From Armatimonadetes bacterium DC (GTDB taxonomy: Bacteria; Armatimonadota; Fimbriimonadia; Fimbriimonadales; GBS-DC), in the NCBI GenBank assembly GCA_001442985.1, contig LDYB01000016.1:186001-250000 (forward strand): DNA of 64,000 nucleotides. Reading direction: 5' to 3'. Of this stretch, positions 29,259 through 48,945 are shown in pieces. Position 1 is the first letter of the stretch, and each line of letters opens with the position of its first letter. The notes under the pieces are model-generated. The model was not told where the DNA came from, did no database searches, and was given only the letters and a program-made list of their open reading frames with translations. The position numbers and the translations under genes were made by a program.

Positions 29259-29516
29259 TTAGTGCGCACCAGAATTCCGATATATTGCAGGTGGATTCCG
29301 TCGACCAACCTCCTGCTCCAGTTCTTCAGCAGGGTAGTCGTACAGGCATACCCCGTAGTGTGCCAGAATCTCCGCAAAAGCGCGCACCGAGTACCCTGCC
29401 AGATCTGCCGCCTTGCCTAACGAGAGCCGATGTGTTTCATATAACTTTATCGCCAACAGCAGCCGAGCCTCCTCAGCAGAAATGGATTGCGGCAGCTCCA
29501 ACTCCATCTTCGCCAT
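29259..29516 (-). CDS. UPF0175 family antitoxin-like protein
   Basis: 85 residues: MELELPQSISAEEARLLLAI, KLYETHRLSLGKAADLAGYS, VRAFAEILAHYGVCLYDYPA. This is the UPF0175 fold (ribbon plus HTH), normally the antitoxin of a DUF3368 PIN-like toxin. GGAGGA precedes the ATG and a TATACT box lies at 29534-29539. The expected toxin would follow on the minus strand, but only 52 bases separate the stop from repeat copy C and no PIN-like reading is present. It is therefore an orphan. Confidence 0.82.
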   Translation of the reverse strand: MAKMELELPQSISAEEARLLLAIKLYETHRLSLGKAADLAGYSVRAFAEILAHYGVCLYDYPAEELEQEVGRRNPPAIYRNSGAH

Positions 29517-29574
29517 AATAATTCCTCCAGAAAAGTATACCATGCCATGCCTGTGTGGGCGGTGAGGCTGACAC

Positions 29575-32018: not shown

Positions 32019-32025
32019 CGCCCGA

Positions 32026-32031
32026 AGTATA
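32026..32031 (-). promoter_or_regulatory. -10 element of the methyltransferase gene
   Basis: TATACT preceded by GG on the minus strand, seven bases before the ATG, so the message would have almost no leader. Confidence 0.5.
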
Positions 32032-32079
32032 CCACAATTGACAGGAATCCCCCGCTCAATCCCGAACGAGACTCCGGGC

Positions 32080-35863: not shown

Positions 35864-37168
35864 TCACTCTGTTGCTGAATGCACCGCTCCCACCAGCTCG
35901 CCCATCACGCCCTCTGGGGAGACATCCACGATTCGCACAGACACCAGTTGCCCCGCCAGACTCGGCGAGCCAGCGAACTCCACCTGCAGGTAGTGGTCGC
36001 TTGTGCCCGTCATCAGCCCACTGAGCTTGGAGCGGGTCTCCACCAGCACGCGCTCCACCCTGCCGATAAAACGGCTCGCGTAGCGCAGCTGCACCTGCTT
36101 GCAGAGCGCCTGCAGTCGCTGGCTCCGTTCGGTCTTCACGGGTTCGGGCACTTGAGCCTCCATCGCCTCGGCAGGGGTTTCAGGACGCGGCGAGTAGCGG
36201 AAAATGTGCGCCCGACAGTATTCCGCCGCCTCCACCACTTTGCAGGTGTTCTGGAACGCCTCCTCATCCTCGCCGGGAAAGCCAACCATAATATCGGTGC
36301 TGATGGCAAGGTCGGGAATGCGCTCGCGCAGGCGACGGCACAGGTCCAGATAGAACGCCTGGTCATACGGGCGATTCATCGCTTTGAGAATGCGCGAGTC
36401 GCCGCTCTGGAGTGGGATGTGCAGGTGCGGGCACATCTTGGGGTTGGTGGCAATCTGTTCTATCAGCGCGTCGCTGATGAGCGTCGGCTCGATGGAGCTG
36501 ATGCGGATGCGCTCCAGTCCCTCAATCTCGCTCAGCAGGGCGCAGAGTTCCGCCAGATCGGGTCCCCCACTGCCTGAAAGGGGTCCGTAGTCGCCAATCA
36601 GCACGCCTGTCAGCACGATTTCGCGGTAGCCCTCGGCGACCAGCGCCCGCGCCTCTTCCAGCACCTCCGTGTAAGGGGTACTGCGCATTACGGGGCGCGT
36701 GAGCGGAATGGAGCAAAACGAGCAGTTCACATTACAACCGTCCTGAATTTTCAGCACGGCGCGGGTGCGGCGTCGGATGGGCGTTTCGCCAGCGCGGCGT
36801 TCGGCTTCCAGACGCTCGCGCAGGTGGGGGAAATGCTCCAGCACATACTCCAGCGTGCGCAGCTTTTCGGGGTTAGGCACGACGAGGTGCGCCTCGTCCA
36901 GTTTCTCACCACGCCGCAGGGTGAACTGTGCGTAGCAGCCCGTCATCACCACAATCGCGTTGGGGTTCATTCGGCTGGCACGGCGGACGGTCTGGCGCGA
37001 TTTCGCCTCCGCCGACTGTGTTACCGAGCAGGTGTTAATCACATACACATCGGCGGGCGACTCGAAGGGCACAATCTCAAACCCCTGCGCCTCGAAACTT
37101 TCCAGAATCTTCTGGGTCTCGTACTGATTGACCTTACACCCCAGCGTGGTGAACGCCGCAGTTGGCAT
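35864..37168 (-). CDS. mtaB: tRNA t6A37 methylthiotransferase
   Basis: Converts t6A37 to ms2t6A in tRNAs reading ANN codons. 434 residues: an UPF0004 domain (TTLGCKVNQYETQ, NTCSVTQSAEAKSR, VMTGCYAQ) supplying three cluster cysteines, a radical-SAM domain with CNVNCSFCSIPLTRP near residue 144, and a C-terminal TRAM domain. The ATG follows a TACAAT box by ten bases. This promoter and the first 13 codons are duplicated upstream, on the far side of hicBA. Confidence 0.94.
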   Translation of the reverse strand: MPTAAFTTLGCKVNQYETQKILESFEAQGFEIVPFESPADVYVINTCSVTQSAEAKSRQTVRRASRMNPNAIVVMTGCYAQFTLRRGEKLDEAHLVVPNPEKLRTLEYVLEHFPHLRERLEAERRAGETPIRRRTRAVLKIQDGCNVNCSFCSIPLTRPVMRSTPYTEVLEEARALVAEGYREIVLTGVLIGDYGPLSGSGGPDLAELCALLSEIEGLERIRISSIEPTLISDALIEQIATNPKMCPHLHIPLQSGDSRILKAMNRPYDQAFYLDLCRRLRERIPDLAISTDIMVGFPGEDEEAFQNTCKVVEAAEYCRAHIFRYSPRPETPAEAMEAQVPEPVKTERSQRLQALCKQVQLRYASRFIGRVERVLVETRSKLSGLMTGTSDHYLQVEFAGSPSLAGQLVSVRIVDVSPEGVMGELVGAVHSATE

Positions 37169-37192
37169 AGCGGGGAGAATTGTACCTTATGG
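37130..37192. repeat. 63-bp direct repeat, copy at the mtaB start
   Basis: It spans the mtaB promoter (TACAAT, minus strand 37184-37179) and its first 13 codons. It matches 37682-37744 in 62 of 63 positions; the one difference is CGGGGAG against CGGAGAG. The bases outside the repeat do not match. Confidence 0.95.
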
Positions 37193-37205: not shown

Positions 37206-37427
37206 CTACTCCTCCATAAGTTTCAGTAAATCGTCCCGGCTCAAGCCACACTGGTTCAGAATGTCTCTTAAGGTGCCTTTTGCCAGCTCATCGTGCAGGG
37301 GCACAACCGTCCTGCGATCACCTTTGCGCAGGCTCACATGGCTACCTTTCTGGCGCACGACTTCAAAGCCTGCTTTTTGGAGAAGGCGTATTAGCTCTCT
37401 TCCAGAAAGGACAGGTAGCTTAGGCAT
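37206..37427 (-). CDS. hicA: HicA-type toxin
   Basis: 73 residues with the double-stranded-RNA-binding-like HicA fold: LPVLSGRELIRLLQKAGFEV, then RQKGSHVSLRKGDRRTVVPL with the catalytic His in GSHV. It is a ribosome-independent mRNA interferase. It follows hicB with an eight-base overlap. After its stop comes the native mtaB promoter copy. Confidence 0.92.
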   Translation of the reverse strand: MPKLPVLSGRELIRLLQKAGFEVVRQKGSHVSLRKGDRRTVVPLHDELAKGTLRDILNQCGLSRDDLLKLMEE

Positions 37428-37659
37428 GCGTTTGGACTTCCAGCGGGTAAAGCACTATTTCCTCAGCGCTTTCGGGCAAGTCTTCGCCGAAGCTTTCTAT
37501 GTAGAGTTCTACGGCTTCGCGGAGATTCGCGCGTGCTTCATCCAGCGTGCGCCCCTGTGTGGTAACACCCAGCTCGACGCAGCGTGCGATGTACCAGTCG
37601 CCCTCCTTGACGATGAGAGCGCTGTATCGCCTGAGTGTGGGCAAAGCTTTTCTACTCAC
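37420..37659 (-). CDS. hicB: HicB-type antitoxin
   Basis: 79 residues with a partially degraded RNase H fold: YSALIVKEGDWYIARCVELG, VTTQGRTLDEARANLREAVE, then LYIESFGEDLPES. There is no C-terminal HTH, so this is the short form. The GTG start lies four bases after the TGA of an 18-codon mtaB-derived leader, with GAGGTGA as the ribosome site. It is probably coupled to that leader and transcribed from the duplicated mtaB promoter. Confidence 0.92.
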   Translation of the reverse strand: MSRKALPTLRRYSALIVKEGDWYIARCVELGVTTQGRTLDEARANLREAVELYIESFGEDLPESAEEIVLYPLEVQTHA

Positions 37660-37663
37660 TATC

Positions 37664-37720
37664 TCACCTCGCTCGCCAACCGACCTTACACCCCAGCGTG
37701 GTGAACGCCGCAGTTGGCAT
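37664..37720 (-). pseudogene. Duplicated 5' fragment of mtaB acting as a leader for hicBA
   Basis: The frame reads MPTAAFTTLGCKV, identical to the MtaB start, then diverges to GWRAR and stops 18 codons in, directly before hicB. A TACAAT box (minus strand 37736-37731) precedes it, as in mtaB. It is a non-functional MtaB fragment that leaves an intact promoter and start site upstream of the toxin-antitoxin genes. Confidence 0.8.
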
Positions 37721-37744
37721 AGCGGAGAGAATTGTACCTTATGG
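37682..37744. repeat. 63-bp direct repeat, copy upstream of hicB
   Basis: The second copy of 37130-37192, with one mismatch. The pair bounds a 489-bp unit holding hicBA. Confidence 0.95.
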
Positions 37745-37883
37745 AGGCTTGGTCAGGGCTTGCGAAACGAAAACGGGTCGTTAAATAGGCGCGTATCGGC
37801 AACCTTCTCCACGCGCCCCATGGGCAGGTGCAAACACCAGAGCGACTTTGCCATCCCCGCAGGATTCTCTAACCGTTTGCAGA

Positions 37884-37976
37884 GCAGGTCGGCTTCGTCT
37901 CGTAGGAACGGCTTCAGCCCTCTGGCGCAAACGCCGTGTGATTCCGTTGCTTGCGCGTTTTCCCAGACAGTCTCTA
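37884..37976 (+). repeat. Family 1 palindromic repeat, copy D (right part only)
   Basis: It starts inside the second hairpin (GCAGGTCGGCTTCGTC), keeps the right end TAGGAACGGCTTCAGCC, and continues in the right extension seen in copy B (TTCCGTTGCTTGCGCG ... AGACAGTCTCTAA). The left half is missing. No gene is seen between here and the direct repeat. Confidence 0.75.
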
Positions 37977-37977
37977 A

Positions 37978-38652
37978 TCAATCACTCAACAACGGTGGAG
38001 CGTATGCATGAATAGGCGAGAAAAGATTCGCTACCTCCACCCTGTGTATCTTAGCGTGGCGCGGTATGCGGAAGAAAGCGTGTTCCTCGGGGATTGCCGT
38101 GCGATAATGCAACAGGATATGCCGACGCCGCAGTCGTCCCTCCCACCACAATTCGGAACAGACTGGCACCTCTTGCCCTAAAAGAGGAGGCTCGGCTCGA
38201 AAACACACACGCCACTCCACCGTAGCGCTTTCACCCACACGCGGTAAGTAGCGATACCGCTCTATCAGTCGCCGTGAACACTGCCGATGCGTACAGAACT
38301 TCAAGTTGCTTGCCGTGTCCCTTTCCAGCAACTGCCACTGGACGCTTCCATAGAGATTGCCGAAGTCGTCTCGGAAATAGGGCATCAGCGAACGGCTCAT
38401 CCAGAGGCGCAGCAGCGCGTCGGGAATCTGCGCCGTAAACACAGTAGGCGTCTTGAACGGATAGAACCAGGTATAGGCGGTATTGCCACGAAAGAATAGA
38501 TAGTGTTCTGTGATGGCGCCCACCGCTAAGCGACGACCAACGATTTCGCCTTTGGGATTGATGAGGCGGATTTCACGCCCCCATTCCGACTCGCCGCCGA
38601 ACCTGTCGAGCCACTCTATCAGCTCTTCCTCAATCAGCCATTCGGATTGCAT
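37978..38652 (-). CDS. Unidentified soluble protein of the accessory island
   Basis: 224 residues, beginning MQSEWLIEEELIEWLDRFGG. It is acidic at the N-terminus, then Trp/Arg-rich with an alternating pattern (ITEHYLFFRGNTAYTWFYPF, VEWRVCFRAEPPLLGQEVPV) and a CTHRQCSRR segment. There is no signal peptide or membrane helix. GGAGGT seven bases before the ATG fixes the start; the longer frame to 38730 runs through a repeat fragment. It lies last in the minus-strand island and could be an immunity protein, but that is only position. Confidence 0.6.
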   Translation of the reverse strand: MQSEWLIEEELIEWLDRFGGESEWGREIRLINPKGEIVGRRLAVGAITEHYLFFRGNTAYTWFYPFKTPTVFTAQIPDALLRLWMSRSLMPYFRDDFGNLYGSVQWQLLERDTASNLKFCTHRQCSRRLIERYRYLPRVGESATVEWRVCFRAEPPLLGQEVPVCSELWWEGRLRRRHILLHYRTAIPEEHAFFRIPRHAKIHRVEVANLFSPIHAYAPPLLSD

Positions 38653-38657
38653 CCCGA

Positions 38658-38768
38658 TTACCTCCTCGCCCTTTCGGTATCCTTGCTCTGCACTGCCAGC
38701 CCGTTGCTGTCCTGCGGATAATAACCCCACGGGGCGCCCGATGAACCCATCATCAGCAAAGTACCCCC
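38658..38768 (-). pseudogene. Fragment of a repeated secreted-protein module
   Basis: Between two stops the frame reads GGTLLMMGSSGAPWGYYPQD then SNGLAVQSKDTERARR. The first part matches the module at 42449-42709 (GGTLLMMTQAGEPWGYYPQD, SNGLAVQS) almost residue for residue and at the DNA level. There is no start codon. It appears to be a displaced piece of a larger protein, joined here to the gene at 37978-38652. Confidence 0.6.
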
Positions 38769-38794
38769 CTATGTGAAACGCGCTTGTTACAATT

Positions 38795-39496
38795 TTACCA
38801 TGAACCGTGAACTCCGCGACCTATAATGCGTCCAGTGCCGTCCGTTTCCCAGAAAAACCAAAGGGATAAAGAGAGCCGAGGGTCATTTTCCTGAACCAGG
38901 CGTGGTTCACAATAGAAATACTTTCCCACAGCATGCTCTTTGAGGAAACAGCCCCTTCTCACCTCCCAGCGGTTCCCCCGTTTGACAACATCGTACAGTT
39001 CAGCAAAGCCGCACGGAGTAAACTGCGGTCCAATGTCGCGCTTTACAGTCGAGAGCGGAGCCTCCAGCAGGACAGGAGGTAGAGAGAAGGAAACGGAGGA
39101 TTTCGTTCGCCCACCCGCTATCCACAAATACCTCACCACACGCGAGTCACGGTTGAGCCACAGCAGAAGGCGAAGCGGTTGTTTGCTATCTTCAAAACAT
39201 GCAAGCGATACTGCATACTGATTACTTACTTGCTGACCGCGTATTATACGCCATTGCTCAATTCTGGGATAAAGGGAAAGTATTTCCCCAATCGTTCGAG
39301 AGGTCCAGAATAACTCAAACCTTGCCTGGTTGTCCTGTATCGCTTCATTATAGTGTTCAAGGATTAGGTCAAGCGAGGCGAGTCGGAGAATCATCGCCCC
39401 AACAAAACCAAGCACCACCAAAAAACCTCCTGCTGCCAGAAAGCGGTGTCTCAGTGCCATCTTCTGTACCCTTGCTGATGACAACATCACTGACAC
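38795..39496 (-). CDS. Membrane-anchored protein of unknown function
   Basis: 233 residues. One N-terminal helix (FLAAGGFLVVLGFVGAMIL) is followed by an extracytoplasmic domain (HYNEAIQDNQARFELFWTSR, LLWLNRDSRVVRYLWIAGG). I do not recognise the family. The GTG at 39496 overlaps the previous small gene by ten bases; ATGs at 39490 and 39460 are alternatives, and the last sits closest to the hydrophobic segment. Confidence 0.55.
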   Translation of the reverse strand: MSVMLSSARVQKMALRHRFLAAGGFLVVLGFVGAMILRLASLDLILEHYNEAIQDNQARFELFWTSRTIGEILSLYPRIEQWRIIRGQQVSNQYAVSLACFEDSKQPLRLLLWLNRDSRVVRYLWIAGGRTKSSVSFSLPPVLLEAPLSTVKRDIGPQFTPCGFAELYDVVKRGNRWEVRRGCFLKEHAVGKYFYCEPRLVQENDPRLSLSLWFFWETDGTGRIIGRGVHGSW

Positions 39497-39696
39497 TCAA
39501 GCCAATCATTATTCGAAACGGTCGGGTCGAAATAACGCCTCTTTTCGCGAACGACAACCGCGCAGTTGACGCCATCAAAATTCGCCTTTTCGTCGAGAGC
39601 GCTATCGCTTCCTGGAGCAGGTCGTGGACACCAGGATTGGTACTCCTCCACACTCGCACAAGTTTCACCGCCTATTTCTCGCTGATACACCCGCAT
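39487..39696 (-). CDS. Possible small cysteine-containing protein
   Basis: 69 codons starting MRVYQREIGGETCASVEEYQ and ending NNDWLECQ, with four Cys. GGGGGTG lies a few bases before the ATG and the frame fits snugly between its neighbours, overlapping the next start. I do not recognise it, and it may not be translated. Confidence 0.35.
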   Translation of the reverse strand: MRVYQREIGGETCASVEEYQSWCPRPAPGSDSALDEKANFDGVNCAVVVREKRRYFDPTVSNNDWLECQ

Positions 39697-39757
39697 CGCC
39701 ACACCCCCGCATCCAATACGACACACTTGCCGATACTCCTGCTAATATTCCCCACAA

Positions 39758-40960
39758 TCACAAGTCAAAACAATACAAATATCCATCACTGCTGGCAAAA
39801 ATTACCTGATTGCTCACAACCCACGGACTTCCGAACACAGCGTCTCCTGTGCGATAGCGCCAGCGAACCCTCCCCGTACGCGTGTCAAGAGTGTAAAGCC
39901 AGCCGTCGTTATCACCGATGTACAACGAAGCCCCTGCAACGGACGGGGAACAGCTGCTTCCTGCCTGCAGACATGAAGCCCAAAGTACTCTGCCATCCTG
40001 AATATCGAGACAGGAAACTGTGCCCTGTAACCCCACTGTAAAGATTCGCCTTCCGTCACATGCGGGAGAGGCGTCGCCTAAATCAGGCAGGATTTGGCTC
40101 CACAGACGTTGCCCATCTTCAAGGCGAAATGCGGACACATGCCCCTCCGATGCGACACGGCTTTTGGAAACCACAATGACCCTATCGCGACAGATGCAAG
40201 GGGTGGCATAGCTCTCCTCTGCATGAGGAGGTACTGTACGCCATTTGAGACGCCCTGTTGCGGCGACATAAGCAAAGAGTCCCTCTCTAATCGTATTGAC
40301 AATCAATGTGGTTGCAGACTGACAAGGTCCGCTTGCAACCGCGCCTGTCGTTGTCTGCCACACAGGTTTGCCAGAAGCAAGGCGAAAAGCCCTCACTGAG
40401 TTGAAATCCGCGATAAAAACCCAATCCCCAACAATCAGGGGTGACATGACAAATCCAGACAAGCCATCCGATTGCCACACCTCGGCGTTGCGCCTCCAGT
40501 CGAGACAGACCAGTCGGTTGTCCCCTCCGCTTTCCGCACGGCAGATAACTACTCTCTCCCCACTGATGGAAGGCTCATAGTAACCTGTCCCACGGAATCG
40601 GTGGACAGAGCGCGTCTTCAGAGAGATGCGGTAGAGGTATCCTCCTCGGCGGCTCGGCAATTCACGCTGGGAAGAAATAAAAAGATTATCCCCAGCCACC
40701 ACGGGAGCTCCCCTCATGCCGCGGCGAACGGACAATCGCCACTTCAGTCGCTTTGGCACTCCGCCTGATGAGGTTTTGAAGTACCCTGTTCGTTCTGCGC
40801 CATTTCTCCACAGTCCAACCGTTGTCGTTCGAACCACCCCCATCACGGATTGAAACCACAAGTCAGGGTCATGAACACCACACAGATTGTGACAGTCTGT
40901 TTCCTTCCCTGCAAGCCAGCCGTAATATTCTACCGTCTTTCTGCAGCAGTCATGACACAT
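39758..40960 (-). CDS. PQQ-like beta-propeller protein with a cysteine-rich N-terminus
   Basis: 400 residues. From about residue 70 there are repeated propeller blades (GAPVVAGDNLFISSQ, MSPLIVGDWVFIADF, CSPSVAGASLYIGDNDGWLY, GSPWVVSNQVIFASSDGYLY), each ending in a Trp-containing strand as in PQQ-like repeats. The first 35 residues are unusual: MCHDCCRKTVEYYGW, then ETDCHNLCGVHD, a CxxCC...CxxxC pattern seen in tips of Rhs-like proteins. No signal peptide is visible and there is no clear ribosome site. The frame is open upstream to a TAG 15 codons before the ATG, so the N-terminus may be a joined fragment. Confidence 0.65.
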   Translation of the reverse strand: MCHDCCRKTVEYYGWLAGKETDCHNLCGVHDPDLWFQSVMGVVRTTTVGLWRNGAERTGYFKTSSGGVPKRLKWRLSVRRGMRGAPVVAGDNLFISSQRELPSRRGGYLYRISLKTRSVHRFRGTGYYEPSISGERVVICRAESGGDNRLVCLDWRRNAEVWQSDGLSGFVMSPLIVGDWVFIADFNSVRAFRLASGKPVWQTTTGAVASGPCQSATTLIVNTIREGLFAYVAATGRLKWRTVPPHAEESYATPCICRDRVIVVSKSRVASEGHVSAFRLEDGQRLWSQILPDLGDASPACDGRRIFTVGLQGTVSCLDIQDGRVLWASCLQAGSSCSPSVAGASLYIGDNDGWLYTLDTRTGRVRWRYRTGDAVFGSPWVVSNQVIFASSDGYLYCFDL

Positions 40961-41034
40961 AGCGGTTGCTAATGCGCCCGCCCGAAAGCCGTTGAAAACC
41001 TAAGCGCCTTTGCACTTTATTTTCAGCACCGCGA

Positions 41035-41107
41035 GTATGGAGCGCTGAAGTGCAGCTTCAGCGTGGGGAAGACAGCGCGGAAGCTGCGCATCCGCAGTCC
41101 ATAGACC
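41035..41107 (+). repeat. Family 2 hairpin repeat
   Basis: Two adjacent hairpins, CGCTGAAG-N5-CTTCAGCG (41043-41063) and GCGGAAGC-TGC-GCATCCGC (41077-41095), ending AGTCCATAGACC. The end matches 9453-9470 inverted and 16973-16990 directly. It lies in a 177-bp gap with no gene. Confidence 0.55.
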
Positions 41108-41137
41108 CCCTGTGTCGAAATGGTACTGCGATGGCAC

Positions 41138-41500
41138 TTAGTATACCCGTTCCAACTCACACCGATCAACTATTTGCGTTTGCGACTTACATTTTCCTAT
41201 ACTGCCTGGTTTCGGACGCGGACATCGTTCAATGCAGTTTCGCTCTTTTTGCTCACAGTAGTCGACCAAGCGAATAGATATCAATTGGTCACGAAGTTGC
41301 AAGCATATGAGTAAACCATAGACTGTCAGCGCTCCCCATAGGGCTAAACAACCTACAACGCCTGTGCCAACTGCAGTACCCGTACAAATACTCATACAGG
41401 CTACAAATCCCCCGATGAGTCCTTTATCACAAAAGGAACTCAGCATTTTATCCCATTGGTCATACCATCGCTTTGCATTCTCTAAGTATTTGTCGCCCAT
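41138..41500 (-). CDS. Small cysteine-rich protein with a glycine-rich hydrophobic segment
   Basis: About 120 residues with some twelve Cys. A charged start (MGDKYLENAKRWYDQWDKML) is followed by FVACMSICTGTAVGTGVVGC, LALWGALTVYGLLIC, and a charged Cys-rich tail (CEQKERNCIERCPRP). The Gly-rich helix resembles those of membrane-active peptides and Rhs tips. The start is unsure: an ATG at 41500 or a TTG at 41515, neither with a clear ribosome site. It follows the lipoprotein gene directly. The function is unknown. Confidence 0.5.
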   Translation of the reverse strand: MGDKYLENAKRWYDQWDKMLSSFCDKGLIGGFVACMSICTGTAVGTGVVGCLALWGALTVYGLLICLQLRDQLISIRLVDYCEQKERNCIERCPRPKPGSIGKCKSQTQIVDRCELERVY

Positions 41501-41517
41501 TCGTTGGCACCGCAAAC

Positions 41518-42087
41518 TTATTGGCGCAGGATTATCTCGCGCAGTGCAGACAGCTGTTCGCGTGCGTATTTGTTACTCTGCACTACATACTTGTAGTCCG
41601 CAACCGCGCCACTCCCGCGTCTCATCGCTTTCAGCTCTGTCTCTGCTTCTTGAAAAAGTTGATCTACACGAGCAAAAACATCCCGACGCCCCTCTTGCCT
41701 GTGCAAAGTATCTTTAAGTTGTTCCCATACCGCTCGAAGACTCAGAAAATATACAACCTCATCCTCATCGACCTTTGCAGTTGCCGCCCGCTCGAAGAAT
41801 TGCCAGGCTATTTCTACTGCGTGCTCAGGATATTTTTTCTCAGCACAAACCTGTTCCAGCTTGGATGCGACTGCTCTCAGTGTGGCAGGGTCAGGTGCTA
41901 ACCAGTTGGGGTGTTGAAGTTCCCTACCAAGCAGCTCCAGTGCTTTATCAGGAGACTCAACATGATTGATTGCTAATATCTGGCTTAGCTTCGGACGATG
42001 CCACGCTTGAGAGGGTGGGCGAGAATCATTCTTACACGCACTCAGAATCACAAGAGCAATCAGAGACCCTATAGCGAAGATACGCAT
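41518..42087 (-). CDS. Lipoprotein of unknown function
   Basis: 189 residues. The lipobox LSAC follows MRIFAIGSLIALVI, so the mature protein begins at Cys18 and is membrane-anchored. The rest is helical (LEQVCAEKKYPEHAVEIAWQ, FFERAATAKVDEDEVVYFL), TPR-like in feel. It sits between two cysteine-rich genes on the same strand, so it could be a surface immunity or chaperone protein for them; that is inference from order only. Confidence 0.65.
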   Translation of the reverse strand: MRIFAIGSLIALVILSACKNDSRPPSQAWHRPKLSQILAINHVESPDKALELLGRELQHPNWLAPDPATLRAVASKLEQVCAEKKYPEHAVEIAWQFFERAATAKVDEDEVVYFLSLRAVWEQLKDTLHRQEGRRDVFARVDQLFQEAETELKAMRRGSGAVADYKYVVQSNKYAREQLSALREIILRQ

Positions 42088-42107
42088 AACTTTCTCCTCA
42101 TTTATTG

Positions 42108-42437
42108 TTAATTACAGTTTGCGTAGCAGTGAATGCGCTCTGCATAGCACCTGTTCCAGTCAAACCAAGGTCCGGGTCCAATGCGCGGCTTTATATTAGC
42201 TACACAGCAAGCCCATTTTATATCACAACAATTCTGGCAATCTACCAGATCGGGATTGTGGATATCGCATGGATTCCCTTTTTTGCACTGTGGAAGGTTG
42301 CTAAAAACTCTACAGAAGTTTTTTTCGCATAGATTTCCAATAATATCGTCGACGACTTTCTCCCCGATCTTTGTTCCAATACACTCGGCAAAACATTTCC
42401 AAAAGTCCCTTGCCAACCGTTTTTTGCGGCATTTCAT
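42108..42437 (-). CDS. Cysteine-rich small protein, candidate Rhs-type tip
   Basis: 109 residues with 15 Cys. The C-terminal half reads NPDLVDCQNCCDIKWACCVA then NRCYAERIHCYANCN, a CxxCC...CxxxxxxCxxxC arrangement. I recall this kind of pattern at the ends of Rhs/YD-repeat proteins in several phyla. It begins 11 bases after the stop of a fragment of such a protein. An AAGGA lies upstream of the ATG. A longer frame to 42605 only reads the repeat module out of frame. Whether it is translated alone or was once a fused tip is unclear. Confidence 0.5.
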   Translation of the reverse strand: MKCRKKRLARDFWKCFAECIGTKIGEKVVDDIIGNLCEKNFCRVFSNLPQCKKGNPCDIHNPDLVDCQNCCDIKWACCVANIKPRIGPGPWFDWNRCYAERIHCYANCN

Positions 42438-42448
42438 AACACAGTCCT

Positions 42449-42709
42449 TTAGCGTACTATCATCTTGATTGTCTTCTCCACACCCCCATCCACCAGTGGG
42501 GAACACACGGCTACCTGCGTCGGCACAAACACAGGACACGCACACGGCTCGGCAAGCGCACTCTGCACCGCCAGACCGTTGCTGTCCTGCGGATAATAAC
42601 CCCACGGCTCACCCGCTTGCGTCATCATCAGCAAAGTACCCCCACTGGGCACAAACCGCCAGTTCTCACTATACCCCGGCGCGTTCCCAGCAGGCAGGTA
42701 ATCCTCCAC
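42449..42709 (-). pseudogene. C-terminal fragment of a larger exported or surface protein
   Basis: 87 codons reading VEDYLPAGNAPGYSENWRFV, PSGGTLLMMTQAGEPWGYYP, QDSNGLAVQSALAEPCACPV and on to VDGGVEKTIKMIVR. The frame is open further upstream into the preceding gene, and the GTG used here has no ribosome site. Its middle part is repeated at 38658-38768. It is most likely a fragment left by recombination. I cannot name the parent family with certainty. Confidence 0.45.
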
Positions 42710-42735
42710 TCTTGCCTGACTGCGACCTTCCCGTT

Positions 42736-43407
42736 TTACTCCCTCAAAATCTCCTTCGCACCCGGCGTGTGCCGCAGCTCCTCCCGACTCAGGCGTCGCT
42801 GAGACTCCCAGTCAGGCTCCACCTTCCAGAGCCGATACACCTTCTGGCTCCTGTCCCATTTCCATACTCGCCGTGCAAACACACAGCGTTGCGAAGCGAT
42901 ACGGGTGTAGTACGGCTCTTCCAGCTGAATCGTCAGGAGCGATTCCACCACCTCCCAGATGCCATCGCGGTTCACATCCCGAACCTCCGCCTGAAATCGC
43001 CCTTGATTGCGATACAGCCAGCGCGCCTTGCTGGGGCTATCAAACAGGAGAACCCCCATCGTACAAGATTGCCCATCCACCCAGTAGAAGATTTCATCCT
43101 TGCCATCACGGTTCAAATCGCGCACAACCAGTTTTCCTCCACAGCCGTGCCCGACGAGCTGTTGCCAGAGGCGTTTCGCAGGGTGGTTGGGCGGGGCTTC
43201 CAGAACAACCACATAGACATTGCCTGGATCCTGATAGACGGGTTCGCCTGCGCGAGCCGCCGCCGTTTTGCGCACGAGGGCGACAACACACCCATGTTGC
43301 GGTAGAAGCCGTACCGAGCGCGCTGTCGCCAGTATCTCCAAGTAATCCTTGGCAAGAGCCTGAAACACCTTTGCCTGATCATTATCGCTGTTCCGTGAGT
43401 ACTGCAT
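42736..43407 (-). CDS. FG-GAP/VCBS-like repeat protein of unknown function
   Basis: 223 residues. Two short calcium-loop-like motifs, VVRDLNRDGKDEIFYWVDGQ and VRDVNRDGIWEVVESL, resemble FG-GAP/VCBS repeats, which form propeller blades in surface proteins. There is no signal peptide. GGAGGA lies seven bases before the ATG. It sits directly after a YD-repeat fragment, a usual place for an immunity or tip-binding protein, but that is only positional. Confidence 0.6.
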   Translation of the reverse strand: MQYSRNSDNDQAKVFQALAKDYLEILATARSVRLLPQHGCVVALVRKTAAARAGEPVYQDPGNVYVVVLEAPPNHPAKRLWQQLVGHGCGGKLVVRDLNRDGKDEIFYWVDGQSCTMGVLLFDSPSKARWLYRNQGRFQAEVRDVNRDGIWEVVESLLTIQLEEPYYTRIASQRCVFARRVWKWDRSQKVYRLWKVEPDWESQRRLSREELRHTPGAKEILRE

Positions 43408-43444
43408 GCCTCATCCTCCTAACTTCAATCCGCTTTCTTTTGAC

Positions 43445-43741
43445 TCATCCATTATTGGACTCATACTCATACGCCACCTTCACAGTCCCACTCCCATTCC
43501 GCTCAATCCGCGTCAGACGACCCTCCTCATCATACCCGAACACCTGTGCATAACTGTTCGGCTGATTATTGCTCCACCGCGCCAGCGTGCCTTCAGGGTT
43601 CCATGCAAAGTGGTTCACTACACCGGTTATCGCATCCCCCACCTGCGTCAACCGCCCCGACACAGGGTCATACCCATACACATCCCGATGCCTGCCGTTC
43701 ACCGCGTCATCCCGCTCCGCCCACTGCCGACTGCCATCTAT
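43445..43741 (-). pseudogene. Rhs/YD-repeat protein fragment
   Basis: The open frame begins just after a stop (43744-43742) with no start codon and reads DGSRQWAERDDAVNGRHRDV, YGYDPVSGRLTQVGD, WNPEGTLARWSNNQ, VFGYDEEGRLTRIERNG and YEYESNNG. These are three YD repeats of the type Y-x2-xGRLT. Whole Rhs proteins are over 1000 residues, so this is a small remnant. It shows that the island once held a polymorphic-toxin-like gene. Confidence 0.8.
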
Positions 43742-43754
43742 CTACTCCTGCTGT

Positions 43755-44612
43755 TCAATCATCTGTGTCATTTGTTTGAGCTGTTAATTGTGAAGATCCG
43801 CTGCCGCTCGATTCAGATTCCAATACAGGCAAAAGCCATGTGATATTGCTGAATCCCCTGCGCTGCCACCCTGCTTCTCGCTCTCGGATGTGTTGAGTCA
43901 GCCTTTGAAGGCGCTTCGCGGAACGCCAGCGCCCACGCCATAGCAGCCATCGGCATACCACCCGTAGCCACTCAACACGCGCCTCCAGGGCAATCCATCT
44001 ATCAAACCGCTCTCCCAACTCGCTGATTAACAGCAACCCGTCCACGATTCTGTACCGTTGTTGAGGTGTTGCACTGTCCCAAAACTCCATAAGCCATTCA
44101 GGAATGCGGCAGGTCACTACCGAAAAGGGAGGGCGATACAAGCCCGAGCTGTAGATGGCAGCATAGCACCAGGCAGCTCTTATATGAGCTTCCCACAGCT
44201 GAAGTGCCGTTTCCGTGTTCTCAAAGTGCATAATGAAAGCAAGATCGTTCAGGCTTTCAGGAACGGCACGCCCCATTATCAAAAGCTTGCGCATTTCTGA
44301 TTTTATTTTTTCGGCATCAGTTTCTTGTTCAAACAGTTCATTTATTTCCGACTTTAAAAAATCTACTTTAGTAGTTAGTAATCTTTCACTATCAAACAAC
44401 TTATTAAAAAGTATGCTTTCTAATTTACGAATTTCCTCTTTGTATTTTTTCACCTTTTCTTCAGTGTCGTCAACGATATCTGGAAACCATCTTAATATGC
44501 TTAGTATGAAATGAATCGTTTCATAAAGCGCCTCCCATCGCTCTTCCGAGCGATAGACCTGCGCCATTTGTTCCTGCAGCTCCAGCATTTCCTGCGGGGT
44601 CGGGTCAAACAT
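43755..44612 (-). CDS. Unidentified helical protein of the accessory island
   Basis: 285 residues. The N-terminal half is charged and coiled-coil-like (DTEEKVKKYKEEIRKLESIL, EINELFEQETDAEKIKSEMR). The C-terminal half is Trp/Arg-rich (VEWLRVVCRWLLWRGRWRSA). The DNA is markedly AT-rich around 44.3-44.4 kb, unlike the neighbours, which suggests transfer. The ATG is six bases from a TATAGT box and a palindrome adjoins that box. I do not recognise the family. Confidence 0.6.
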   Translation of the reverse strand: MFDPTPQEMLELQEQMAQVYRSEERWEALYETIHFILSILRWFPDIVDDTEEKVKKYKEEIRKLESILFNKLFDSERLLTTKVDFLKSEINELFEQETDAEKIKSEMRKLLIMGRAVPESLNDLAFIMHFENTETALQLWEAHIRAAWCYAAIYSSGLYRPPFSVVTCRIPEWLMEFWDSATPQQRYRIVDGLLLISELGERFDRWIALEARVEWLRVVCRWLLWRGRWRSAKRLQRLTQHIREREAGWQRRGFSNITWLLPVLESESSGSGSSQLTAQTNDTDD

Positions 44613-44618
44613 AGGATA

Positions 44619-44638
44619 ACTATACCCTATCGATAGGG
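44619..44638 (-). promoter_or_regulatory. Promoter with 14-bp palindrome upstream of the helical-protein gene
   Basis: A perfect palindrome CCCTATCGATAGGG (44625-44638) abuts the TATAGT box (44624-44619, minus strand), six bases before the ATG. It is well placed as an operator where a dimeric repressor would block RNA polymerase. Confidence 0.5.
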
Positions 44639-44744
44639 ATAACAGGTTTTGGCTTCCAGCTAGGCGGCGACATCATACATATAGCCGTGCAATTTTTCAT
44701 GCACTTCAAATACCCAATCGGCTTATCTGTAGTAACATTTGGAT

Positions 44745-44903
44745 TCATCCTGCCCGGTCGTCTCCGCAACACAAACCTCGCCCATCGCTACAAGTGCTAC
44801 ATCCGCTCCTGCCCCAGAACTGCTCCCATATCGCCCATGCACCACCGTCCTCCTTGTACGACTCGGTCAGGCTGTCACGCGGTTGATGAAACTCGACCTG
44901 ACC
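44745..44903 (-). pseudogene. Cysteine-containing remnant
   Basis: A 53-codon stretch open from a TAG to a TGA without a start codon. It reads DSLTESYKEDGGAWAIWEQF and ends GCSTCSDGRGLCCGDDRAG, again with CxxC and CC. It looks like another displaced tip. The remainder of the 44.61-44.94 kb gap shows no gene. Confidence 0.35.
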
Positions 44904-44937
44904 CTATGTTGCTTGTGAGAGTAGCAGCAAAGCGCCG

Positions 44938-45894
44938 CTATCTATCAAGCAACCTCTGTACGTAGGAAAGCAAGTACGCCCTATTCTCCGCAGCTGGCTC
45001 ACGGCTTCCCCGAACGAATATCCCGTCGCCCAAGGGGTAGCCTCGTTCGCTTAGATAAGCCCTGTAGAAGTAATCCAGCGCTTTTCTGAAACGACCTGAG
45101 CGGTCCGCTTGAGACCACCGTTCCAGCACACGGCATAACTGATTCAGCACTTTCTCAGGCAACGGCACTGTTGCAAGGATTTCAATAGATCGGAACAGGC
45201 ACGCAATCGCTTCGGCATCCGGGCGCAGTCGGGATACAAAGCCCACAAGCGCGTCTATGGTCTGAGGAGTTATCGCGTAGTCCCCCAGCACGCGAAGCCC
45301 CAACTCAACGAGATACAGGTCTTGAGAGTTCAGTAAACGGTCTAAAAGCCGCTTCGCAGAAGGTGCGCCAAGCCCGAGCAGGATTGCCGTCGCCACGAAG
45401 GGAGTGATATCTTCAAAGGTCGGTGTCGTTGATGCCCATTGGAGCAACCTCTTTTCATACGGGCGAAAGTCGTACTCCATCTGCAACAGGATTTCCAGCA
45501 CCGTGCTGCGATCACAGTCCAGAATCCGACCGCTCCACAGCAAATCCGCAATCAGCGGAATCAACGGTCTCGCACGGGAACTGAGAATCCAGTAGAGCGC
45601 ATCATTCCCCAGCAGGGGGTCCGTGGTAAGGACCTCTTGAACCGCCTGGTGGGTGATGCTCTCATCTGGAAATCGGCTTATCAGCCCATAGAGAGCGGCT
45701 CTACGAACCCCATACCTGTGCGAGCGCCACATGCTGTGCAGAGTGTCGAGCGTAGCGCTTTCGGGAAGAGCCCGCGGGATAGCCTCAAAATTTGAGACGG
45801 AAGGCTCCGACAGCACCCTTCGCTGAGGCGCATAGTATGGATGCTCCTGCATGTGGCGCGACACAAACTCGATCAACCGGCGAGCGTCGCTCAT
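44938..45894 (-). CDS. HEAT-like helical repeat protein
   Basis: 318 residues of paired helices: LDTLHSMWRSHRYGVRRAAL, YGLISRFPDESITHQAVQEV, and LGAPSAKRLLDRLLNSQDLY then LVELGLRVLGDYAITPQT. This suggests HEAT/ARM-type repeats, which bind other proteins. There is no signal or membrane segment. It heads the minus-strand accessory island. The 173-bp gap between it and ffh holds no gene that I can see. Confidence 0.6.
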   Translation of the reverse strand: MSDARRLIEFVSRHMQEHPYYAPQRRVLSEPSVSNFEAIPRALPESATLDTLHSMWRSHRYGVRRAALYGLISRFPDESITHQAVQEVLTTDPLLGNDALYWILSSRARPLIPLIADLLWSGRILDCDRSTVLEILLQMEYDFRPYEKRLLQWASTTPTFEDITPFVATAILLGLGAPSAKRLLDRLLNSQDLYLVELGLRVLGDYAITPQTIDALVGFVSRLRPDAEAIACLFRSIEILATVPLPEKVLNQLCRVLERWSQADRSGRFRKALDYFYRAYLSERGYPLGDGIFVRGSREPAAENRAYLLSYVQRLLDR

Positions 45895-46067: not shown

Positions 46068-47423
46068 CTACCGCCCGCGCCCCATGCGGAACCATTTGCC
46101 GCGTTTCTGCATCGTTTGCTGGTACTTGTTGAGTTGTTTCATGAGCTTGCGCATTTCCATCAGCTGATTGATGAGCGCGGAGACCTCTTCGATTTTGGTG
46201 CCGCTGCCGCGGGCGATTCGCGCTTTGCGACTGTAGTTGATGATTTCAGGATGGCGGCGCTCCTGCGGGGTCATAGAAAGAATAATCGCTTCGGCGCGTT
46301 TGAGGGCGCGGTCGTCTATCGCCATCTCGCCCAGCTGTTGCTTGAGCTGATTGTAGCCAGGCAAAAGCTTCAACAACTGCTCGAATGGACCCATGCGCCG
46401 AATCTGTTGCATCTGCATGAGCATATCTTCGAAGTCAAAGGACGCCTCGCGCAGTTTTTTCTCCATGCGCTTGGCTTCCTCTTCCTGCATGGTCTGCTCC
46501 ACGCGCTCAATCAGCGACAGCACATCACCCATGCCGAGGATGCGGCTGGCGATGCGGTCGGGGTAGAACGGCTCGAGGGCGTCGGTGCGCTCGCCGACGC
46601 CAATAAAGCGCACGGGCTTGCCCATCACGGCTTTGAGCGAGAGCGCCGCGCCGCCACGCGCATCGCCGTCCATCTTGGTGAGAATGACCCCTGTCAGCTC
46701 CAGTCGTTCGTTGAACGCCTGCGCCACATTGACCGCCTCTTGCCCCGTGGTGGCGTCCACGACCAGCAGAATCTCGTGGGGCTGGAGGGCGTCGCGCATC
46801 TGTTGCAGTTCCTGCATCAGGGGTTCATCAATCTGCAGGCGTCCTGCGGTGTCCAGAATCAGCACATCGTAGCCGTTGGCGCGGGCATAGGCGTAGGCGG
46901 AGCGCGCGACGCTCACCGGGTCGCTCGCCCCAGCCTTTTCGGGCGTGTGGACATAGACGCCTACCTGCTCGCCCAGCACCTCCAGCTGCTTGATGGCGGC
47001 AGGGCGCTGGAGGTCGCACGCTGCCATCATCGGTTTGCGCCCCTGCGAGCGCGCCCAGCGCGCCAGCTTCGCGCAGGTGGTGGTCTTACCCGACCCCTGC
47101 AAGCCACAGAGCATGAACACGGTGGGCGGCGACGACGCCCAGCGAATCGGCTCCGCCTCGCCCCCCAGAAGCGCAATCAACTCGTCGCGCACGATGCGCA
47201 CCACATGCTGGTCGGGCGTCAGGCTCTTCAGCACCTCGTCGCCGACCGCCTTCTCACGCACCCGCGCAATAAACTCCTTCACCACCCGAAAATTAACATC
47301 CGCCTCCAGCAACGCCAGGCGGATTTCGCGAAGCACCTCGTCTACGGTCTTCTCGTCTAAGCGCCCCTTCCCCCGAATGCGGCTGAAGATGCCCTGCAGC
47401 TTGTCCGTCAGGCTCTCAAACAT
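46068..47423 (-). CDS. ffh: Signal recognition particle GTPase
   Basis: Binds 4.5S RNA and signal sequences and targets ribosomes to the membrane through FtsY. 451 residues: N domain (FESLTDKLQGIFSRIRGKGR), G domain with GLQGSGKTTTCAKLARWAR, DTAGRLQIDEPLMQEL, ILTKMDGDARGGAALSL, and an M domain ending in KRGKWFRMGRGR. The ATG at 47423 follows a TATACT box by eight bases; an in-frame ATG at 47525 would lie in the divergent icd gene. It shares a palindromic promoter region with icd. Confidence 0.97.
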   Translation of the reverse strand: MFESLTDKLQGIFSRIRGKGRLDEKTVDEVLREIRLALLEADVNFRVVKEFIARVREKAVGDEVLKSLTPDQHVVRIVRDELIALLGGEAEPIRWASSPPTVFMLCGLQGSGKTTTCAKLARWARSQGRKPMMAACDLQRPAAIKQLEVLGEQVGVYVHTPEKAGASDPVSVARSAYAYARANGYDVLILDTAGRLQIDEPLMQELQQMRDALQPHEILLVVDATTGQEAVNVAQAFNERLELTGVILTKMDGDARGGAALSLKAVMGKPVRFIGVGERTDALEPFYPDRIASRILGMGDVLSLIERVEQTMQEEEAKRMEKKLREASFDFEDMLMQMQQIRRMGPFEQLLKLLPGYNQLKQQLGEMAIDDRALKRAEAIILSMTPQERRHPEIINYSRKARIARGSGTKIEEVSALINQLMEMRKLMKQLNKYQQTMQKRGKWFRMGRGR

Positions 47424-47429
47424 ACCGCC

Positions 47430-47458
47430 AGAGTATACCCCATCAGCGGGTATACTCT
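47430..47458. promoter_or_regulatory. Bidirectional palindromic promoter of ffh and icd
   Basis: A perfect inverted repeat with 11-base arms AGAGTATACCC and GGGTATACTCT around CATCAGC. Each arm holds a GGGTATACT extended -10, one for each direction. The two boxes are only 14 bases apart, so polymerases starting both ways would compete. Confidence 0.65.
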
Positions 47459-47481
47459 CGGATGGATGGAGGATACGAACG

Positions 47482-48945
47482 ATGGCGTACATTACAGAGA
47501 GCGGTAAGAAACTGATTACGGTCATCCCGGGCGACGGGATTGGTCCAGAGTGTATTCAATCGGCGTTACGAATTCTGGAGGCGGTGGGCGCCCCGCTGGA
47601 GTGGGAAGTGCGCGAGGCAGGCGCCAGCGTTTTCAAAAAAGGAATTGAATCGGGCGTACCACAGGAAACCATCGAGTCGATTCGCAAGACGCGCGTGGTG
47701 CTGAAAGGTCCGCTGGAGACTCCAGTGGGCTATGGCGAGAAGAGCGCGAATGTGACCCTGCGCAAGCTGTTTGAGACCTACGCGAATGTGCGCCCCGTGC
47801 GCGAGTTCCCGAATGTGCCCACCCCTTACAGCGGACGCGGGATTGACCTCGTGGTGGTGCGCGAGAATGTGGAAGACCTCTATGCAGGTATCGAGCATAT
47901 GCAGACCCCTGGCGTGGCGCAAACGCTCAAGCTCATCTCGCGCAAGGGGTGCGAGAAGATAGTGCGCTTCGCGTTTGAGCTGGCGCGCGCCGAGGGGCGC
48001 AAAAAGGTTCACTGCGCCACCAAAGCCAACATCATGAAGTTCGCTGAGGGGATGCTGAAGCGCACCTTCGAAGAGATTGCCCCCGAATATCCCGATATTG
48101 AGGCGAACCACATCATTATTGACAACTGCGCCCACCAGCTGGTCAAGCGCCCCGAACAGTTCGAGGTGATTGTCACCACCAACATGAACGGCGACATCAT
48201 CAGCGACCTGACCTCGGCGCTTGTGGGCGGGCTGGGCTTCGCGCCGTCGGCGAATATCGGGAATGAGGTGGCTATCTTCGAGGCGGTGCATGGCTCCGCG
48301 CCGAAGTACGCGGGCAAGAATGTGATTAACCCCACCGCGGTGATTCTCTCGGCGGTGATGATGTTGCGCTACCTCGAAGAGTTCGAGGCGGCTGCCACGA
48401 TTGAGAACGCGATTCTCTACACGCTGGAAGAGGGCAAGGTGCGCACGGGCGATGTGGTGGGCTACGACAAGGGCAGCTCCACCACCGAATACACCGATGC
48501 GATTATCGCGAATCTGGGCAAGAAGCCCAGCACGGCGTTCGTGCGCGAGTATCGCCCGATTCGGCTGCCGCAGGTGCCTGCCGACCCTGTGCGGGTGCGT
48601 CCCAGCACGCGGCGTGTGGTGGGCGTCGATGTGTTCGTGGAGACCGACCTGATGCCCGAACCGCTGGGCAAGGCGCTGGAAGCGCTGGTGGAAGAGTCGC
48701 CCTTCTACCTCAAGATGGTCTCCAACCGCGGCACGAAGGTCTACCCGCCCACTGGCGCGATTACCGATGTGGTGGACCACTATCGGTGCCGCTTCATGCT
48801 CCGCGATGCGCAGGGCGACGCGAGCGATGCCCAGATTCTCGATCTGGTACAGCGCGTGGCGTCGCGCTTCCGCTGGATGCATATCGAAAAACTGCAGGAG
48901 TTCGACGGCGCGCCGGGCTTCACCAAAGCACAGGGCGAGGACTGA
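47482..48945 (+). CDS. icd: NADP-type isocitrate dehydrogenase, Thermus-like
   Basis: Oxidises isocitrate to 2-oxoglutarate in the citrate cycle. 487 residues. The catalytic core (1-335) has VIPGDGIGPECIQSALRILE, RENVEDLYAGIEHMQT, NMNGDIISDLTSALVGGLGF and EAVHGSAPKYAGKNVINPTA. A further 150 residues form a C-terminal domain (DVFVETDLMPEPLGKALEAL, VSNRG-type end), as in the Thermus enzyme. Cofactor choice is not proven by sequence alone. The ATG is preceded by GGATGGAGG. A strong terminator follows. Confidence 0.93.
   Translation: MAYITESGKKLITVIPGDGIGPECIQSALRILEAVGAPLEWEVREAGASVFKKGIESGVPQETIESIRKTRVVLKGPLETPVGYGEKSANVTLRKLFETYANVRPVREFPNVPTPYSGRGIDLVVVRENVEDLYAGIEHMQTPGVAQTLKLISRKGCEKIVRFAFELARAEGRKKVHCATKANIMKFAEGMLKRTFEEIAPEYPDIEANHIIIDNCAHQLVKRPEQFEVIVTTNMNGDIISDLTSALVGGLGFAPSANIGNEVAIFEAVHGSAPKYAGKNVINPTAVILSAVMMLRYLEEFEAAATIENAILYTLEEGKVRTGDVVGYDKGSSTTEYTDAIIANLGKKPSTAFVREYRPIRLPQVPADPVRVRPSTRRVVGVDVFVETDLMPEPLGKALEALVEESPFYLKMVSNRGTKVYPPTGAITDVVDHYRCRFMLRDAQGDASDAQILDLVQRVASRFRWMHIEKLQEFDGAPGFTKAQGED

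What the first reader, a model, noticed from the sequence alone, without database searches (positions are those of the whole stretch)
37978..45894. Degraded Rhs/YD-repeat island with cysteine-rich candidate tips
All genes here are on the minus strand. A start-less fragment at 43445-43741 has three clear YD repeats. Around it are a 109-residue protein with 15 Cys (42108-42437), a 120-residue Cys-rich protein with a Gly-rich helix (41138-41500), a propeller with a CxxCC...CxxxC N-terminus (39758-40960), a Cys remnant (44745-44903), a lipoprotein, and several unidentified proteins that could be immunity partners. This looks like the tip end of a polymorphic-toxin locus, with displaced alternative tips, in a lineage where such systems are little studied.
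Basis: partly seen in the sequence, partly recalled or inferred. Interest (0 to 1): 0.7.

Follow-up and report, generated by a model that had tools for sequence, protein, structure and literature searches.

The report
Broken bacterial toxin array, antidotes kept
This stretch of a bacterial genome holds the wreckage of several genes for weapons used against other bacteria (pieces of a toxin-carrying shell and cysteine-rich toxin ends) lying next to still-open genes that look like the matching antidotes.

Summary
The island (37978-45894, minus strand) is a decayed row of Rhs-type polymorphic-toxin cassettes. Four pieces of one YD-repeat core are present (A 43448-43741, C 42476-42709, B 39640-39741, C' 38673-38768); intact relatives in the same family run A-B-C-tip in one frame. 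The 109-aa, 15-Cys protein is a tip: in bacterium HR15 its homologue is fused in frame behind the same core and the next gene is homologous to the window's lipoprotein. The tip occurs in 6 of 301 genomes, always behind a core end. In the window every core-bearing frame is truncated or out of frame, yet each abuts an open ORF of 189-233 codons. No full-length core of this kind is in the assembly. Best reading: weapon lost, immunity genes kept. The core variant lacks the usual Rhs_assc_core boundary; relatives carry Cys-rich tips (7.1% Cys pooled), a few weakly PLA2- or CS-alpha-beta-like. The 120-aa ORF, the 285-aa ORF and the 44.8-kb remnant stay unassigned. Nothing was tested experimentally.

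The parts
44938..45894 (-). 318-aa ORF, weak HEAT-like, probable immunity gene of a lost cassette
   Evidence: 38-39% identical homologue in G011:C5 (L082 5559-6494) between two YD-repeat frames; 2 of 301 genomes, own included; HEAT_2 E 0.0058 below cut-off
44745..44903 (-). Cys-bearing open stretch, possible tip remnant, unassigned
   Evidence: no convincing homologue in the fetched loci
43755..44612 (-). 285-aa ORF, unassigned; candidate immunity gene by position only
   Evidence: no Pfam family; weak PADLOC MkoC match 3.6e-4
43448..43741 (-). core piece A: YD repeats, 5' truncated, followed by a stop
   Evidence: PF05593 26.2 bits; 71-73% aa identity to own C14 copy; 75-77% DNA identity to C14, C15 and G004 copies
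42736..43407 (-). FG-GAP protein, 223 aa; probable immunity protein of a lost peptidoglycan-hydrolase tip, perhaps 5' truncated
   Evidence: starts 37 nt after the stop of piece A; homologues behind Rhs C-termini in L125 (SLT tip) and L126; homologues begin with a hydrophobic segment that the window copy lacks
42476..42709 (-). core piece C (end of core, junction to tip)
   Evidence: 91.5% DNA identity to G004, 86.5% to own C14, about 78% to G002 C18 copies
42108..42437 (-). tip: 109-aa, 15-Cys toxin domain; its frame differs from that of piece C
   Evidence: 57-63% identical to the in-frame tip of HR15; 6 of 301 genomes; 11 invariant columns, 9 of them Cys, in six sequences; AF2 model all-alpha, pLDDT 79.8, no PDB fold match
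41518..42087 (-). 189-aa lipoprotein, probable cognate immunity protein of the tip
   Evidence: homologue directly behind the tip in HR15, 28-33% identity, E 6e-11; 2 of 301 genomes, both behind the tip; hydrophobic N-terminus; lipobox by eye
41138..41500 (-). 120-aa Cys/Gly-rich ORF, unassigned
   Evidence: only itself in 301 genomes
39758..40960 (-). PQQ-type beta-propeller ORF; N-terminus carries CxxCC-x16-CxxxC, by eye like the end of the tip at L081 3382-3807
   Evidence: PF13360 4.1e-37; PDB matches to designed propellers and BamB; tip ends
39640..39741 (-). core piece B
   Evidence: 78% aa identity over 36 residues to own C15 copy
39490..39633 (-). tip remnant behind B; its last 35 residues match a tip end in G001
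   Evidence: 47.5% identity over 40 columns, L091 3093-3212
38795..39496 (-). 233-aa ORF with hydrophobic N-terminus, probable immunity gene
   Evidence: homologue directly behind the similar tip end in L091, 23-26% identity, E 4e-9; hydrophobicity
38673..38768 (-). core piece C', truncated
   Evidence: 83-nt direct repeat of piece C; 94% DNA identity to own C14
37978..38652 (-). 224-aa ORF (from ATG 38652), candidate immunity gene by position
   Evidence: starts 5 nt after the stop of C'; no Pfam family for the longer 250-aa frame

Best explanation
The island is a decayed tandem row of Rhs-type polymorphic-toxin cassettes. Shown by sequence: in relatives each cassette is the end of one YD-repeat core, a variable and usually Cys-rich tip, and an ORF starting next to the tip's stop. 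Inferred: the core is exported (one intact copy starts with a signal-peptide-like segment), the tip reaches a rival cell's envelope, folds with disulfides and does its damage there, and the following, often envelope-anchored protein neutralises it. In this genome the weapon side is broken (cores reduced to pieces, the one near-complete tip out of frame with its core piece, other tips shortened or gone), while the following ORFs remain open. The most likely present role, inferred only, is passive immunity against neighbours that still carry these tips.
For: Core pieces and their order: (66 B/C places in 11 of 18 family genomes). Tip fused in frame behind the same core in HR15 and next gene homologous to the lipoprotein. 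Tip in 6 of 301 genomes, behind a core end each time: a TIGR03696 Rhs core in L117; in L116, L118 and L119 a repeated handle that lies in frame behind YD repeats in L058 and L059. 37 of 37 tips of 70 aa or more have an ORF starting -38 to +46 nt from their stop; 23 of 37 of these ORFs have a hydrophobic N-terminus against 12 of 48 other window ORFs, p 5.8e-4. In the window the four core-bearing frames (A, C with tip, B with tip remnant, C') are followed at +37, +20, -10 and +5 nt by ORFs of 223, 189, 233 and 224 codons. An 811-aa N-terminal core query finds only a 57-aa remnant with a stop in the own genome. Long open frames exceed chance.
Against: Retention of immunity function is not shown: only one distant homologue exists for most ORFs, so selection could not be measured. 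The FG-GAP ORF seems to lack the signal segment of its homologues, and the 318-, 285- and 224-aa ORFs show no hydrophobic N-terminus, so they act in the cytoplasm or are decaying too. The assembly has 26 contigs and several break inside Rhs sequence, so a full-length core could be missing from it. The frame difference between C and tip could be an assembly error. No toxicity or protection was measured.
Confidence: 0.72

Rival explanations
1. Live reservoir: the pieces are displaced cassettes of a working system, kept so that homologous recombination through pieces B or C can move a stored tip onto a full-length core elsewhere in the genome.
For: Piece C is 91.5% identical in DNA to a copy in another genus but 86.5% to the own paralogue, and identity ends near the tip, as expected of exchange through that segment. 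HR15 has a 1189-aa frame with further C-tip cassettes behind it (L081).
Against: No full-length core of this kind in the own assembly; the tip frame does not match its core piece; other tips are shortened or gone.
Confidence: 0.2
2. Neutral graveyard: everything here is decaying, the downstream ORFs included, and has no present function.
For: The FG-GAP copy lacks the hydrophobic start of its homologues; most core pieces are short; two ORFs and one remnant match nothing.
Against: Seven open frames of 180 codons or more on one strand against 0.11 expected while every toxin frame is broken.
Confidence: 0.3
3. The C-tip gene is intact and the frame difference is an assembly error; the cassette is an ordinary displaced tip.
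For: The tip keeps all nine invariant Cys columns of its family; the draft assembly cannot be checked against reads.
Against: Even then piece C has no N-terminal core; A, B and C' remain truncated; G185 shows a similar frame break between handle and tip.
Confidence: 0.12
4. The small Cys-rich proteins are free-standing secreted peptides or metal-binding proteins unrelated to Rhs.
For: The tip ORF has its own ATG; the 120-aa ORF has no homologue in 301 genomes.
Against: In-frame fusion in HR15 and position behind a TIGR03696 core in L117.
Confidence: 0.03

Closest known systems
Orphan rhs-CT/rhsI and cdiA-CT/cdiI modules (Poole et al. 2011, PMC3150448; passages read)
   Same: Tip plus immunity gene behind a short piece of core without a start; arrays; orphan immunity genes reported as expressed
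   Different: There they follow a full-length gene and are joined at VENN or DPxGL; here the assembly lacks a full-length core of this kind, the junction is a different B/C segment, and most tips are shortened or gone
Orphan immunity genes / acquired interbacterial defence (e.g. PMC12247911, PMC10470768; search listing and start of abstract only)
   Same: Immunity genes without an intact toxin
   Different: No protection shown here; remnants of the toxins are still present; association with a recombinase was not looked for
Rhs and WapA-type YD-repeat toxins with Rhs_assc_core (TIGR03696)
   Same: YD repeats, variable tip, following ORF; the tip family also occurs behind a TIGR03696 core (L117)
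   Different: The A-B-C core itself gives no TIGR03696 match
Tox-PLA2 of polymorphic toxins (Zhang et al. 2012, PMC3482391; passages read)
   Same: PLA2-type motif in four tips of relatives
   Different: Pfam matches below cut-off; the window itself has no such tip
Beta-propeller peptidoglycan-hydrolase inhibitors X-Tfi XAC2610, Tsi1, PliI-Ah (PMC10933484, passage read)
   Same: The window's FG-GAP protein has a homologue behind an SLT tip
   Different: A sequence profile search of the PDB did not return them; the partner is lost here

Membership tests
Rhs / YD-repeat polymorphic toxins | YD (RHS) repeats in the core | tested here: met
   piece A PF05593 26.2 bits over cut-off 22; long cores 85 and 105 bits
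Rhs / YD-repeat polymorphic toxins | Rhs_assc_core (TIGR03696) at the core-tip boundary | tested here: not met
   no match in the two long A-B frames P0001 and P0002, while the own C1 protein and HR15 L088 7379-8557 do match; hence an Rhs-like variant, not canonical Rhs
Rhs / YD-repeat polymorphic toxins | variable C-terminal tip on a constant core | tested here: met
   37 tips of 70 aa or more behind B or C in 38 loci, largely different from each other
Rhs / YD-repeat polymorphic toxins | immunity gene directly downstream of the tip | tested here: met
   by position in 37 of 37; by sequence for the window pair in two genera; protection not tested
Rhs / YD-repeat polymorphic toxins | delivery route (PAAR/VgrG/T6SS or Sec signal) | tested here: inconclusive
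   no PAAR-type Pfam match in P0001/P0002; signal-peptide-like N-terminus in P0002 by eye; secretion genes not searched
Rhs / YD-repeat polymorphic toxins | toxicity of the tip and neutralisation by the partner | not testable with these tools
   needs expression in a laboratory strain
Orphan rhs-CT modules | core-derived segment upstream of the tip, without a full gene | tested here: met
   pieces A, B, C, C'
Orphan rhs-CT modules | located downstream of a full-length toxin gene | tested here: not met
   no full-length core at the locus or in the assembly; seen in HR15 C18 and G004
Orphan immunity island | immunity genes intact without an intact toxin | tested here: inconclusive
   ORFs open, toxin frames broken; one ORF seems to lack its signal segment
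XAC2610/PliI-type propeller inhibitors | propeller fold and inhibition of a peptidoglycan hydrolase | tested here: inconclusive
   weak FG-GAP match; homologue behind an SLT tip; no PDB sequence match to those inhibitors

The most novel reading that the evidence does not exclude
This bacterial family and a sister family carry a distinct class of polymorphic toxins: an exported YD-repeat shell with its own B/C junction that delivers disulfide-rich, venom-like tips (an all-helical CxxCC fold, PLA2-like domains, tandem CS-alpha-beta units, M35-like peptidases) to the envelope of rivals, each paired with an envelope-anchored antidote; the window shows a lineage that disarmed and kept a bank of antidotes.
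Probability: 0.35. Interest if true: 0.75.

Novelty: new variant of a known kind. Interest (0 to 1): 0.5.

Why it matters
It adds a tip family with a paired immunity family, neither with a convincing Pfam, NCBIfam or PDB match, in a group of bacteria for which my literature searches listed no study of such toxins. If the tips act as their sequences suggest, they put disulfide-rich folds familiar from venoms and defensins on a bacterial toxin shell, and give a natural case in which loss of a weapon and retention of its antidotes can be compared across genera.

Tried and rejected
Rejected or left open: (1) 120-aa Gly/Cys ORF as a tip: only itself in 301 genomes. (2) Tip as a PLA2: no Pfam match and no PDB fold match for its model. 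(3) Beta-propeller immunity as a novelty: Zhang 2012 says none were known (passage), but a later paper describes propeller inhibitors (passage), so I dropped it. (4) Tip on viral contigs or plasmids: no match. (5) A programmed frameshift between C and tip: not pursued, no evidence. (6) Papers: no paper with Rhs, immunity, lytic transglycosylase and FG-GAP together, none with polymorphic toxin, defensin and cysteine-rich together; the bacterial defensin paper PMC11561630 does not contain the word Rhs. (7) 37756-37845 resembles DNA just upstream of piece A in C14; unexplained. Results against my reading: 2 of 5 non-self FG-GAP matches (L127, L128) have no toxin context and a third (L129) follows a protein with no family match; tips shorter than 70 aa were dropped from the counts; the handle in L116, L118 and L119 gave no Pfam or NCBIfam match and its Rhs identity rests on its position behind YD repeats in L058 and L059.
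Full report
WHAT IS THERE. The window is G000:C16:186001-250000 of a 2.85-Mb, 26-contig genome. Between ffh (46068-47525, SRP54) and a HicAB pair (37206-37659) lies a stretch of lower G+C (about 0.51-0.55 against 0.58-0.63 around it) with the long frames of interest on the minus strand. Seven minus-strand frames of 180 codons or more are present; first-order shuffles of the same stretch give 0.11 on average.

CORE PIECES. Comparing the island's frames with the genome's other Rhs-bearing places shows that it holds four pieces of one core: A (YD repeats, 43448-43741), C (42476-42709), B (39640-39741) and C' (38673-38768). C and C' share an 83-nt direct repeat at 87%. The own genome has further copies at C14 (A and B in one frame; C in front of another tip) and C15 (A and B). 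In other genomes of the same family the pieces run A-B-C-tip in a single frame, e.g. 1189 aa in G002 C18, 586 aa in G002 C21 and 544 aa in G011 C5. A profile of B-C finds 66 places in 11 of 18 family genomes, own included. The C piece occurs in 7 of 151 genomes searched, all of this family; matches to A occur in 30 of 151.

THE TIP. The 109-aa, 15-Cys protein has a 57-63% identical counterpart in G002 C21, which is bacterium HR15 (HRbin15, contig BEHR01000021), fused in frame behind A-B-C. A profile of the two finds the tip in 6 of 301 genomes: the window's, HR15, and four genomes of two other families of the phylum. In G227 it follows a canonical Rhs core (TIGR03696, 2.1e-14). In G142, G178 and G185 it follows a repeated handle of about 40 aa; the handle gives no family match by itself, but it lies in frame directly behind YD repeats in G115 and G129, listed under the same genus label. 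The six tips share 11 invariant columns, 9 of them Cys, so the conserved part is mainly a disulfide (or metal) scaffold and no catalytic set stands out. AlphaFold2 gives an all-helical model (pLDDT 79.8 with only two sequences) without a PDB fold match. A degenerate-pattern scan of GTDB species genomes returned only HR15; viral contigs and plasmids gave none.

THE PARTNER. The gene 20 nt behind the window tip is a lipoprotein (lipobox by eye) of 189 aa; in HR15 the gene 12 nt behind the tip is its homologue (28-33% identity, E 6e-11). A profile finds it in 2 of 301 genomes, both times behind the tip. Behind the four distant tips stand other ORFs that by eye start with hydrophobic segments, too different to call homologous with confidence. 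The model of the lipoprotein is a helical array, pLDDT 78.0, with only weak PDB matches, several to helical-repeat proteins.

OTHER PAIRS. Behind B stands a tip remnant whose end matches a tip end in G001 C53, and in both genomes a homologous ORF with a hydrophobic start follows (window 38795-39496). The 318-aa ORF at the other end has a 38-39% homologue in G011 C5 between two YD frames and is found in 2 of 301 genomes. The FG-GAP ORF, 37 nt behind A, matches 5 other genomes of 301: two homologues stand directly behind Rhs C-termini (TIGR03696 in both), one of whose tips is an SLT transglycosylase (PF01464 4.1e-6); one follows a protein without a family match; two are elsewhere. This suggests an inhibitor of a peptidoglycan hydrolase whose gene is gone here; known inhibitors of that kind with a propeller fold are named in PMC10933484 (passage), but a PDB sequence search did not link them.

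SYSTEM IN THE FAMILY. In 38 loci of the family I collected 37 tips of at least 70 aa behind B or C. They hold 7.1% Cys pooled against 1.3% in 40 other frames of the window. All 37 are followed by an ORF starting between -38 and +46 nt from their stop, and 23 of 37 of these have a hydrophobic N-terminus against 12 of 48 other window ORFs (one-sided Fisher p 5.8e-4). Pfam recognises few tips and only weakly: PLA2 family 1 in two (best 0.0014), Toxin_3 in one (5.6e-4, 20.5 bits, cut-off 21.5), Aspzincin_M35 in one (0.0015) at E up to 0.05. A CC-x2-HD-x-C motif is present in four tips; the Cys spacing of CS-alpha-beta peptides (pattern from recall) occurs five times in three tips against 0.026 on average in 500 shuffles. 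One long core starts with a signal-peptide-like segment (by eye). Together these suggest action outside the cytoplasm; this is inference.

DECAY. In the window A ends before B, C is out of frame with its tip, B leads into a shortened tip, and C' ends in a stop after 36 residues; the four following ORFs begin at +37, +20, -10 and +5 nt. An 811-aa N-terminal core query finds only a 57-aa remnant with a stop in the own genome. The DNA of piece C is 91.5% identical to a copy in another genus and 86.5% to the own paralogue, and identity ends near the start of the tip, whereas A is at 75-77%: the junction segment seems to have been exchanged between lineages. I read the island as cassettes that arrived and recombined through such segments, lost their toxin parts, and kept the downstream ORFs. 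Whether selection for immunity keeps them is open; the FG-GAP copy lacks the hydrophobic start of its homologues.

KNOWN OR NEW. Orphan tip-immunity modules are known (PMC3150448, passages), as are exchange with standalone tip cassettes (PMC3482391, passages) and orphan immunity genes (search listing). New here, as far as my searches go, are the tip and partner families, the core variant without TIGR03696, and the Cys-rich tip set. Literature searches for polymorphic toxins with Armatimonadota terms listed nothing on point among the papers shown; that phylum name is my own reading of the kinship to HR15 and is stated by no call. Verdict: a real, informative but degraded example of a known kind of system in a variant form.

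Noticed in passing
window 37130-37192 and 37682-37744: 63-nt direct repeat (98%) that duplicates the start of a radical-SAM (MtaB-like) gene and brackets a HicA/HicB pair (37206-37659), as if the toxin-antitoxin cassette had inserted with a duplicated gene start.
   Followed up: partly
L085 11329-11658, L086 5213-5536, L098 413-703 (G002 = HR15): Tips with Cys patterns of the CS-alpha-beta (defensin / scorpion-toxin-like) type, five units in three tips; Pfam Toxin_3 5.6e-4 just under cut-off for L086.
   Followed up: partly
L015 10854-11258, L085 6399-7154, L091 260-667, L105 71-721: PLA2-motif tips in four genera, each followed by an ORF; the L105 partner matches TolB (1.4e-9) and the L015 and L085 partners are homologous to each other (29%, 1e-44) though without a Pfam propeller match.
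   Followed up: partly
L081 921-1400 and L084 6497-6994: Tips with an HExxH motif, weak Aspzincin_M35 matches (0.11 and 0.0015).
   Followed up: no
L131, L132, L133 (G142, G178, G185): Another family of the phylum has rows of a short core handle plus varied tip plus ORF with no YD-repeat gene recognised in the fetched stretch; L133 alone holds five copies of the handle.
   Followed up: partly
L117 673-2190: Tip and following lipoprotein-like ORF share one open frame without a stop between them.
   Followed up: no
L015 12989-16798: mutS gene with a LAGLIDADG intein next to the C14 Rhs island.
   Followed up: no
window 29259-32261: Low-G+C stretch (about 0.50) with a 559-aa frame bearing an NPPY motif and a 338-aa frame, by eye a restriction-modification locus.
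   Followed up: no
window 37884-37975: Dispersed repeat of up to 92 nt, also at about 16839, 23765, 29168 and 61221 and in other contigs.
   Followed up: no
L017 9497-14239: Canonical Rhs gene (TIGR03696) of 1581 codons running off contig C1; contigs C3 and C19 also end in Rhs sequence, so the assembly breaks at such genes.
   Followed up: no
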